Assembly: GCA_030145625.1 (NCBI GenBank)
Contig: JAQYVF010000019.1
Location: 1-62,607, forward strand
DNA length: 62,607 nucleotides
Reading direction: 5' to 3'
Source of the DNA: Desulfocapsa sp.
GTDB taxonomy: Bacteria > Desulfobacterota > Desulfobulbia > Desulfobulbales > Desulfocapsaceae
Below, in pieces: positions 60,966 to 62,607 of the stretch. The notes under the pieces were generated by a model. That model saw nothing but the letters and a program-made list of their open reading frames with translations. It was not told the origin of the DNA and did not search any database. Both the position numbers and the translations under genes were made by a program. Position 1 is the stretch's first letter. The number at the start of each line of letters is the position of its first letter.

Positions 60966-62111
60966 TCACCTTGAGTGAATAAGTTCACTCCCCTTTTCCC
61001 CGAAGAGACGAGCTGTCACTCTGTCAGGCAAAACCCGAAGAAAATTTTCCGATGCTACCATCCTGGAAGTCTCCGGTTTCAACGCATCAAGAAGGATATC
61101 AAACTTCTTGATTTCCTTCACATAGGTATCAAAGTGCCCGACCTTATCCGTTCCGATCATGAACCTGTCAGGATACTCCTCTACAAGGGAAACCCAGTCC
61201 CTATCAAGCTTGCCGCCGGGGGCCACATTATCTTCAAAGACAACCCAGGAAAGATCAAACCAAAGATTCCCATAGGTCTTGAGCAATCGATCTGCATCAC
61301 GAATTATTGAAGGAAGAGTAAAATGACGGCTGATTCCCACATGAGCCCAGATAAAACGTGTTTCCGGATTCCCCTTAAGTGCATCTTCCATCTCATGCAT
61401 ATAAACCGGTTCCTGAAGCCATTTATTTCCGATATTATGATGCATCTGTACAGGCAGGTCATTCTCTGCGGCAAGCTCATATATCGGATCAAGAGCGATA
61501 TTATTTGCCCGAGCTGTCTCTCCATAGGTTAATCCCGTCAAATCATCATGGCGGGTAAAAATCTCACCTATCCCTTCCCACAACTCAGGATACCATTGCA
61601 TCATACGACGAACATGGTCAATAGCGTTACGATTGGTCGCATTAAAACCGCAGATAAAAGGATGAAATCTCACTCTCTCTTTCTCGGCAAGTTCCATAAC
61701 CGCACGTGCAACTATTGAATCTGTCGCGCTGTACCAATAGGTACGTGAATCATCATCAAGATAATAGAGAGGTTCGCGGGGCTCTGCAGCATGCCATTTC
61801 TTCAGGACGGGTAACCCCATGACCTGTATATGATACACTCCAGCAGCGTCCATTTTTTCAAGAAGTGCCTCTATTCCATCCGTTTCCTGCAGGAAATCAA
61901 CATAGTGGCAATGAGCATCGGTATAACGATATGCAGTTGACGACATCTTTGCTACCGGTGATGATGCCGCACTTTCCGTCACATTCAGGTGATGCGGTGT
62001 ACACCCGAGCAAAGGATTAAGGGCCACCGTACCTGTGACGGCTGCTGTCGTCTTTAAAAAGTCTCTTCGGGTCAAAGAGTTTATCCCCTTGTTACTCTCG
62101 CTGTCATCCAT
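60966..62111 (-). CDS. Amidohydrolase-superfamily enzyme with a Tat signal
   Basis: 381-aa metal-dependent hydrolase of the amidohydrolase (TIM-barrel, PHP/TatD-like) type. The N-terminus has a twin-arginine signal (SLTRRDFLKTTAAVTGTVAL) and a lipobox-like LLGC, so it is exported folded with its metal. Metal-site motifs: YTDAHCHYVDFLQ early, HMHHN-like QMHHNIGN and FIWAHVGISRH in the middle, and FMIGTDKVGHFDT late. The closest sense is amidohydrolase 2 (decarboxylase/hydratase). It is 29 nt downstream-adjacent (convergent order) to the TraB gene's start side on the same strand. Confidence 0.85.
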   Translation of the reverse strand: MDDSESNKGINSLTRRDFLKTTAAVTGTVALNPLLGCTPHHLNVTESAASSPVAKMSSTAYRYTDAHCHYVDFLQETDGIEALLEKMDAAGVYHIQVMGLPVLKKWHAAEPREPLYYLDDDSRTYWYSATDSIVARAVMELAEKERVRFHPFICGFNATNRNAIDHVRRMMQWYPELWEGIGEIFTRHDDLTGLTYGETARANNIALDPIYELAAENDLPVQMHHNIGNKWLQEPVYMHEMEDALKGNPETRFIWAHVGISRHFTLPSIIRDADRLLKTYGNLWFDLSWVVFEDNVAPGGKLDRDWVSLVEEYPDRFMIGTDKVGHFDTYVKEIKKFDILLDALKPETSRMVASENFLRVLPDRVTARLFGEKGSELIHSR

Positions 62112-62284
62112 AAACCCACCTTCTCAGTTTAATCAATCAGCTATGCACCTTGTGCTATTTCCCCTTTAGCTGCAGACATCAAAAAGATTTCTGATTACCC
62201 ACAAAGCTCAGCCACTTTCTTGAGGGTAGCTTGAAAAATTCGTCGAAAGAGGGGACCGATTTTATTTTTCTTTGAACGCCGCCG

Positions 62285-62350
62285 GGAGACAGAATGATTT
62301 TCGCAAAAAGCCACGAAAAAAATTCAGCCCCCTACCTTTGTAATAAAAAT
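62285..62350 (-). mobile_element. Small repeat element, family 2, copy B (truncated)
   Basis: Inverted relative to copy A at 21853: GGAGACAGAATGATTTTCG, AAAAAGCCACGAAAAAA and CTACCTTTG.. are shared. Similarity stops at about 62350, where copy A would continue to its other end. So this copy is truncated, probably by the structured element that begins at 62352. Confidence 0.6.
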
Positions 62351-62351
62351 T

Positions 62352-62580
62352 CAGACCACGGTTTATTTGTTAAACCGGTAAGGGAAACCGTGGTCTGTCC
62401 CTAACAAGGGGAGTGAGGGGTTAAGTCTGCCTTTGACTCATTTGGACGAACAAAAGTCAAGGGCAGACTTGATAATCATATAAAAGGCACCTCGGCCTGA
62501 AACTCAAGATCGAGCTTCAGGCCCAACCGAGATGGTTGTATAATTGAGGTAGGTAAACCATTACAAAGGAGGTGCCTTTT
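62352..62580. other. Structured element of three inverted repeats (unknown, possibly the end of a mobile element)
   Basis: Hairpin 1: 13-bp perfect arms at 62352-62364 and 62385-62397. Hairpin 2: 16-bp arms at 62423-62438 and 62455-62470 with one mismatch, readable as a G-U pair in RNA. Structure 3: 12-bp closing arms AAAAGGCACCTC (62482-62493) and GAGGTGCCTTTT (62569-62580), which enclose GGCCTGAA/TTCAGGCC (62494-62501/62516-62523) and CAACC/GGTTG (62524-62528/62534-62538) and end in a T-run. No family assigned. Confidence 0.6.
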
Positions 62581-62607
62581 TTACTTCATTATACGATGGA
62601 ATCGATC

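What the first reader, a model, noticed from the sequence alone, without database searches (positions are those of the whole stretch)
62352..62607. Unidentified highly structured region at the right edge, inside a truncated repeat
Three successive inverted repeats (13, 16 and 12 bp arms, the last enclosing two more hairpins and ending with T-run) occupy 230 bp, right where the family-2 repeat stops at 62350. It may be the end of a mobile element, an RNA leader, or a non-coding RNA with terminator. An ATG follows 16 nt later.
Basis: partly seen in the sequence, partly recalled or inferred. Interest (0 to 1): 0.6.

Follow-up and report, generated by a model that had tools for sequence, protein, structure and literature searches.

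The report
Left end of a jumping gene
The folded stretch at the edge of this contig is the left end of an RNA-guided jumping gene (an IS1111-type insertion sequence) that landed in a small repeated palindrome; its main hairpin looks built to hide the ribosome-binding site of the transposase, while the guide RNA lies at the other end, outside the window.

Summary
The inverted repeats are real (RNA fold z = -10.1, 0 of 200 shuffles), but they are three neighbours of different origin. (1) 62352-62397: a REP-like hairpin of a class dispersed in this genome. (2) 62417-62470: a REP palindrome like those flanking a RAYT gene of the same genome. (3) From 62471: the left end of an IS1111-type (IS110 superfamily) insertion sequence that interrupts palindrome 2 at its target, AGACTT|GACCCC. 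The contig stops 9 codons into the transposase because the element is multicopy: one more such left end and three right ends lie at other contig ends.

The third structure (62482-62580) pairs the left subterminal inverted repeat (sTIR) with the Shine-Dalgarno just before the transposase start. 38 of 39 distinct leaders form a strong stem there, some with compensatory changes. It is best read as a translational brake, as shown experimentally for ISPpu9. It is not a bridge/seek RNA: target-following guides lie in the first ~95 nt of the right end (2/5000 permutations), not in the leader (3981/5000). It is not a terminator: the T-run is peculiar to this copy. New member of a known kind; the sTIR doubling as anti-Shine-Dalgarno strand is the possibly new point and is untested.

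The parts
62189..62351 (.). truncated copy of the dispersed family-2 repeat (left neighbour, not part of the element)
   Evidence: matches to other contigs of the own genome; the edge is where six other copies diverge
62352..62397 (.). hairpin 1, REP-like, arms 62352-62364 and 62385-62397
   Evidence: AAACCGTGGTCTNNCCC has 34 sites with up to 2 mismatches in the own genome against 13 for the reversed control; a whole related hairpin on C113
62417..62470 (.). hairpin 2, REP palindrome interrupted by the element; left target ends at 62470
   Evidence: same REP beside a RAYT gene on C50; uninterrupted right REP on C15
62471..62579 (+). left end (LE) of the IS1111-type element = leader of the transposase gene
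   Evidence: homologous left ends in relatives with differing left flanks
62471..62476 (+). GATAAT, candidate -10 of the promoter formed when the two ends join (inferred)
   Evidence: right ends of the own genome carry TTGACA 18 nt before the junction; no sigma-70-like site within the window stretch itself
62481..62492 (+). left subterminal inverted repeat TAAAAGGCACCT
   Evidence: 11 of 12 identical to the inverted right tip found in this genome
62482..62493 (+). 5' arm of the outer stem
62494..62523 (+). inner hairpin, variable between subgroups
62524..62538 (+). second small inner hairpin CAACC..GGTTG
62568..62580 (+). Shine-Dalgarno GGAGG (62568-62572) and 3' arm of the outer stem
62580..62607 (+). 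first 9 codons of the transposase, cut by the contig end; start position reads TTT here, ATG in C59
   Evidence: homologous 340-aa protein in L032 with PF01548 and PF02371

Best explanation
An IS1111-type insertion sequence has inserted into the right REP of a REP palindrome, between AGACTT and GACCCC, and the contig stops just inside its transposase gene because several copies exist. The structure belonging to the element (62482-62580) is the 5' leader of the transposase message: its 5' arm is the left sTIR, its 3' arm holds the Shine-Dalgarno and reaches the start codon. Any message that contains the left end, whether read in from outside or started at the promoter formed when the ends join in the circle, would fold so that ribosomes bind poorly, keeping transposase low. 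Shown here: identity of the element, insertion point, sTIRs, conservation and covariation of the stem, position of the target guides at the other end. Inferred: promoter, transcript start, repression of translation, and what relieves it.
For: Left end shared with C59, where it runs into MTSLYAGID, and with a relative whose 340-aa protein has PF01548 and PF02371. Three right ends at contig ends of the same genome, with differing flanks. Uninterrupted target in the same genome. sTIR agreement 232 of 276 over 23 elements, permuted mean 197, maximum 217. 38 of 39 distinct leaders pair the left arm with the Shine-Dalgarno region at -12.6 kcal/mol or better, mean -20.2; of 35 genes of the window, given a laxer search, one reaches -20.2, mean -11.0. 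In 25 dissimilar leaders 81.0% of cells pair (shuffled 75.7%) and the covariation score is 0.169 (0.094), 0/500 each; slid registers reach at most 48.4% and 0.099. Predicted openness of the Shine-Dalgarno 0.08 with the arm, 0.39 without, lower with the arm in 34 of 39. Precedent: ISPpu9 leader.
Against: No expression data. In one search two measures do not stand out: pairs changed on both sides 5 against 3.0 (51/500; 6 in the register slid by -1) and further pair types (50/500). Arms are so conserved that mismatched partners often pair as well: mean -17.4, and only 7 of 39 leaders have no better foreign partner. L075 pairs weakly (-6.6). In 5 of 39 the Shine-Dalgarno is no more open without the arm, and in 25 of 39 it stays under 0.5 open without it. 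Of 10 more distant plasmid relatives the stem is clear in a minority. The third inverted copy could serve DNA recognition. The window copy lacks an ATG at the start position.
Confidence: 0.78

Rival explanations
1. The leader structure is the element's bridge/seek RNA, as in IS110-type elements that carry it upstream of the transposase.
For: IS110-type elements do encode it in the left end (PMC11208160; PMC11187229), and this left end is structured.
Against: Guide sequence following the left target is found in RE 1-95 (2/5000) and for the right target in RE 1-60 (1/5000), not in the leader (left target 3981/5000); an anchored test gives 135 of 168 against a permuted mean of 91.
Confidence: 0.05
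2. The extra inverted copy of the sTIR before the start codon is a DNA site for the recombinase or its RNA, and pairing in the message is incidental.
For: Left arm, right tip and Shine-Dalgarno arm change together between divergent elements.
Against: Where the two sTIRs differ within the stem (64 positions in 23 elements) the Shine-Dalgarno arm pairs with the left base at 57 and could pair with the right base at 14 of these 57 (partly circular, since pairs were chosen on the left arm). The 3' arm keeps its place at the start codon while the distance between arms varies.
Confidence: 0.12
3. The third structure is an intrinsic terminator.
For: In the window copy the outer stem runs into six T.
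Against: C59 reads TTTATG there and the other aligned leaders have a start codon in place of a T-run; the scan finds no + strand terminator.
Confidence: 0.03

Closest known systems
IS1111 group of IS110-superfamily insertion sequences (ISEc11, ISPa11, ISKpn4; PMC11187229)
   Same: DEDD transposase with PF01548/PF02371, sTIRs, long region downstream of the transposase carrying target-matching guides in the order top-strand match then bottom-strand match, promoter-like motifs across the joined ends
   Different: target is a RAYT-type REP; the left sTIR is complementary to the Shine-Dalgarno, which the parts of that paper that I read do not mention; whether this element is listed in ISfinder was not tested
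ISPpu9 of Pseudomonas putida (PMC8450116)
   Same: IS110-superfamily element in REP sequences whose transposase leader folds over the ribosome-binding site
   Different: there a 244-nt leader plus antisense and sense small RNAs; here a leader of about 100 nt whose 5' arm is the sTIR; small RNAs not tested
IS621 and other IS110-type elements with a bridge RNA in the left end (PMC11208160)
   Same: superfamily, RNA-guided target choice
   Different: guide sequence is in the right end here
REP/REPIN elements of RAYT transposases
   Same: hairpin 2 matches the REPs flanking the RAYT gene on C50
   Different: here interrupted by the IS1111-type element

Membership tests
IS1111 group | DEDD transposase of the IS110 superfamily | tested here: met
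   L032 protein: PF01548 E 3.5e-17, PF02371 E 2.8e-15; the window itself holds only 9 codons
IS1111 group | near-perfect sTIRs of usually 11-13 bp | tested here: met
   11 of 12 for the window left end against the right tips of this genome; 8-12 of 12 in 23 elements
IS1111 group | terminal extensions of 7 and 3, or 6 and 3, bases | tested here: inconclusive
   6 and 3 fit L049 and L050, where the sTIR runs to those points; the own element needs a one-base gap
IS1111 group | guide RNA downstream of the transposase, top-strand match 5' of bottom-strand match | tested here: met
   in relatives; order seen. This genome's own right ends are held only for their last ~134 nt
IS1111 group | circular intermediate with a junction promoter | not testable with these tools
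   motifs TTGACA - 18 nt - GATAAT deduced
IS110-type with bridge RNA in the left end | target guides in the left end | tested here: not met
   left target 3981/5000 in the leader; right target not tested there
ISPpu9-type leader control | leader folds over the ribosome-binding site | tested here: met
   by prediction only
ISPpu9-type leader control | the structure lowers translation | not testable with these tools
   needs a reporter
ISPpu9-type leader control | antisense and sense small RNAs | not tested
   no expression data held
REP/REPIN (62417-62470) | dispersed palindrome linked to a RAYT gene | tested here: met
   Y1_Tnp on C50 between the REPs; further sites on C15 and C185
intrinsic terminator | stem followed by a T-run, conserved | tested here: not met

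The most novel reading that the evidence does not exclude
In a wide branch of IS1111-type elements the left subterminal inverted repeat has two jobs: as DNA it is an end of the element, and as RNA it is the first segment of the transposase message, where it pairs with the Shine-Dalgarno. Both ends and the ribosome-binding site would then have to evolve together, and each new circle would make a message that begins with its own brake while the guide RNA further down the same message is unaffected.
Probability: 0.5. Interest if true: 0.5.

Novelty: new member of a known kind. Interest (0 to 1): 0.35.

Why it matters
It explains an odd contig edge as an RNA-guided insertion sequence with a readable target, so that insertion sites and copies in this genome can be checked directly. 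If the sTIR also hides the ribosome-binding site, it suggests a simple way in which these elements, now studied as programmable recombinases, keep transposase low relative to guide RNA, and warns that changing the left end may change expression as well as recombination.

Tried and rejected
Bridge/seek RNA in the left end: not supported by permutation. A second loop at RE 95-235 that resembled the target by eye: not supported (left target 4214/5000; right target, RE 95-200, 653/5000). Intrinsic terminator: rejected. Rfam: none at gathering score in the whole window; the five matches at E up to 10 in 62100-62607 lie far below their cut-offs. Left-end DNA in plasmid records: no match. Transposase relatives in viral contigs: none. 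A search of the own genome with the right end of L043 rang nothing, although the right end of L032 found three.

Wider test of the stem in 10 more distant plasmid relatives (fetched; scored, each against 100 mononucleotide shuffles): L109 Rhodococcus 0/100; L100 Vibrio 2/100; L108 Rhizobium 2/100 but close to the start, not at a left end; L111 6/100; L105 9/100, although GCCGGCCTC/GAGGCCGGC is plain; L099 12/100 with the best duplex elsewhere; L112 13/100; L106 67/100 (scored from 701; the likely start is 683); L107 76/100; L110 80/100. So the feature is likely in some distant relatives and not seen in others; I do not claim it for the whole group.

Rows dropped: 41 leaders gave 39 distinct up to the start codon; L071 and L079 were left out by hand, L024 carries a like left end but was not added, and loci without a recognised left end (L043, L061, L065, L068, L077, L078, L080, L082, L083, L085) gave none. 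25 of 39, below 80% identity, went into the pair count; L064 and L067 are out of register there, which lowers the counts. In one search, 24 of 26 candidates had an anchored guide (L046 cut off, L042 too distant). One search used 23 elements for the left target (L042 and L071 excluded by hand, right ends under 300 nt such as L067 excluded by length) and 26 for the right target. Elements of one genome or lineage are not independent, and the permutations do not correct for relatedness. The left target of L064 was set by hand after the script had picked a wrong GATA. The control genes were 36 picked by hand from the 107 ORFs, of which 35 could be scored.

Full report
What was checked. The three inverted repeats exist at the stated places and the stretch folds far better than its shuffles (z -10.1, 0 of 200); each hairpin does so alone. 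No Rfam family reaches its cut-off.

What it is. The window is the whole of contig C109, which ends at 62607. From 62466 to 62606 it matches the end of another contig of the same genome, C59, at 98%; that copy continues GGAGGTGCCTTT ATG ACT TCA TTA TAC GCT GGA ATC GAT and stops there too. In a genome of the same genus held in 2 contigs the same left end is followed by a 340-aa protein (L032) with both IS110-superfamily domains. One genome of that genus is a Desulfobulbaceae MAG (the same locus appears as L039 and as L043). In the own genome no transposase match reaches E 1e-40, but three right ends lie at contig ends with the same last bases and different flanks. The element is therefore present in at least three copies whose interior is missing from the assembly, which is the likely reason that the contig ends here. 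A decayed left end of another subtype lies on C215.

Insertion point. Most related elements begin GATAATCAT and end AATGGGT. Uninterrupted sites CAGACTTGACCCC occur without mismatch in the own genome on C15, C50 and C185; the one on C15 follows the 3' part of a RAYT gene. The window therefore reads GGGCAGACTT | GATAATCAT, boundary 62470/62471. Hairpin 2 is the palindrome that was hit: the RAYT gene on C50 has the same REP on its left, and its right REP is cut by the contig end at the same point, GACTTGA. Hairpin 1 belongs to another dispersed class (34 sites with up to 2 mismatches against 13 for the reversed control). The family-2 repeat ends near 62351. The 230-bp structured region is thus three neighbours of different origin.

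Which kind of IS110-superfamily element. The IS1111 group is told by sTIRs of usually 11-13 bp, small asymmetric extensions and a guide RNA downstream of the transposase (PMC11187229: abstract, sections 6, 7, 9 and 12, and passages); IS110-type elements mostly carry it upstream (the same; PMC11208160: abstract and sections 5, 6, 7 and 12). Here the sTIRs agree at 11 of 12 for the own element and at 232 of 276 over 23 elements, against a permuted mean of 197 and maximum of 217 (0/3000). The right end carries a copy of each element's own left target: 135 of 168 variable positions over 24 elements, permuted mean 91, maximum 112, 0/10000. A search not tied to an anchor finds the left-target signal in RE 1-95 (2/5000) and the right-target signal in RE 1-60 (1/5000); it finds none for the left target in the leader (3981/5000), RE 95-235 (4214) or RE 235-340 (4762), and none that stands out for the right target in RE 95-200 (653) or RE 235-340 (4410). 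The permutations do not correct for relatedness. The guide RNA should thus lie beyond the window.

What the leader looks like. Between the insertion point and the start codon the leader folds into an outer stem of about 11 pairs around inner hairpins that differ between subgroups. The 5' arm is the left sTIR plus a few bases; the 3' arm is the Shine-Dalgarno and the bases up to the start. 38 of 39 distinct leaders pair at -12.6 kcal/mol or better; L075 at -6.6. Divergent elements keep the stem with other letters: L062 GGCTCCTC/GAGGAGCC, L063 CAATCTCCT/AGGAGATTG, L073 GGCGCCTCC/GGAGGCGCC, L042 GAGAAGGCC/GGCCTTCTC. In 25 dissimilar leaders paired cells (81.0% against 75.7%), covariation score (0.169 against 0.094) and cells changed on both sides (12 against 4.2) exceed all 500 shuffles; pairs changed on both sides (5 against 3.0, 51/500) and further pair types (50/500) do not stand out, and the register slid by -1 has 6 pairs and 11 cells changed on both sides. 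Foreign partners pair at a mean of -17.4 against -20.2 for own partners, and 7 of 39 leaders have no better foreign partner. The Shine-Dalgarno is predicted open 0.08 with the arm and 0.39 without, lower with the arm in 34 of 39; even without it 25 of 39 stay under 0.5. Of 35 genes of the window, under a laxer search, one reaches -20.2 and the mean is -11.0. Where left and right sTIR differ within the stem, the Shine-Dalgarno arm pairs with the left base at 57 of 64 positions and could pair with the right base at 14 of those 57 (partly circular).

How it most likely works. Shown: anatomy, target, covariation. Inferred: joining of the ends brings TTGACA of the right end to 18 nt before GATAAT of the left end; the message would start near the left arm and fold over its own ribosome-binding site, as would a message read in from outside. 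Transposase would be made sparingly while the guide RNA further down the message is unaffected. A leader burying the ribosome-binding site was supported by reporters for ISPpu9, where weakening it raised expression 26-fold (PMC8450116: abstract, section 16 and passages). How the brake would be released here is unknown.

This copy. The start position reads TTT and the sixth codon GAT, against ATG and GCT in C59. Both lie in the last 28 bases of the contig, so decay of the copy and an assembly error cannot be told apart.

Literature. Searches on IS1111, sTIR, ribosome-binding site, Shine-Dalgarno, sequestering and impinging transcription (listings only, apart from the three papers opened) listed nothing that by title or start of abstract describes an sTIR acting as anti-Shine-Dalgarno strand. 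The library holds open-licence papers only, so this is weak evidence of novelty.

Verdict. A new member of the IS1111 group, rightly suspected to be a mobile-element end. The leader brake has a close precedent; its use of the sTIR as the pairing strand is the part worth a test.

Noticed in passing
62189-62351 and copies L003-L008: Family-2 repeat has a REPIN-like look, with inverted heads GGGGACTGA/TCAGTCCCC and, in four of six other copies, GGGAGACAGA matched by a following ATCTGTCTCCC or near variant; the window copy lacks that last arm.
   Followed up: partly
L036 (G002:C106), minus strand: Element in which the transposase breaks off near codon 260 and runs straight into the right tip GGGGCCCTTTAATGGGTGACCCC, as if an internal deletion had removed the rest of the gene and the guide RNA while keeping both ends.
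   Followed up: no
L047, L049 and L065, right ends: The right tip is repeated once in tandem (for instance ...AATGGGTGACAAGGGGCCTTTTAATGGGTGACCCC), possibly a footprint of repeated insertion or aberrant excision.
   Followed up: no
L104 (G000:C215): A second, decayed left end of a different subtype in the own genome, with the transposase frame cut after about 20 codons.
   Followed up: no
L101 (G000:C50) and L116 (G000:C15): The RAYT gene on C50 ends, with its contig, at the element's target point (GACTTGA), while C15 holds the same 3' part of the gene followed by the uninterrupted site.
   Followed up: partly
right ends of related loci, about 300 nt after the stop codon: A conserved GATGGGTGACTGGTGC resembles the right tip AATGGGTGAC and reads GATGAGTGAC in L063 and L064, whose tips read AATGAG: a candidate donor guide, seen by eye only.
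   Followed up: no
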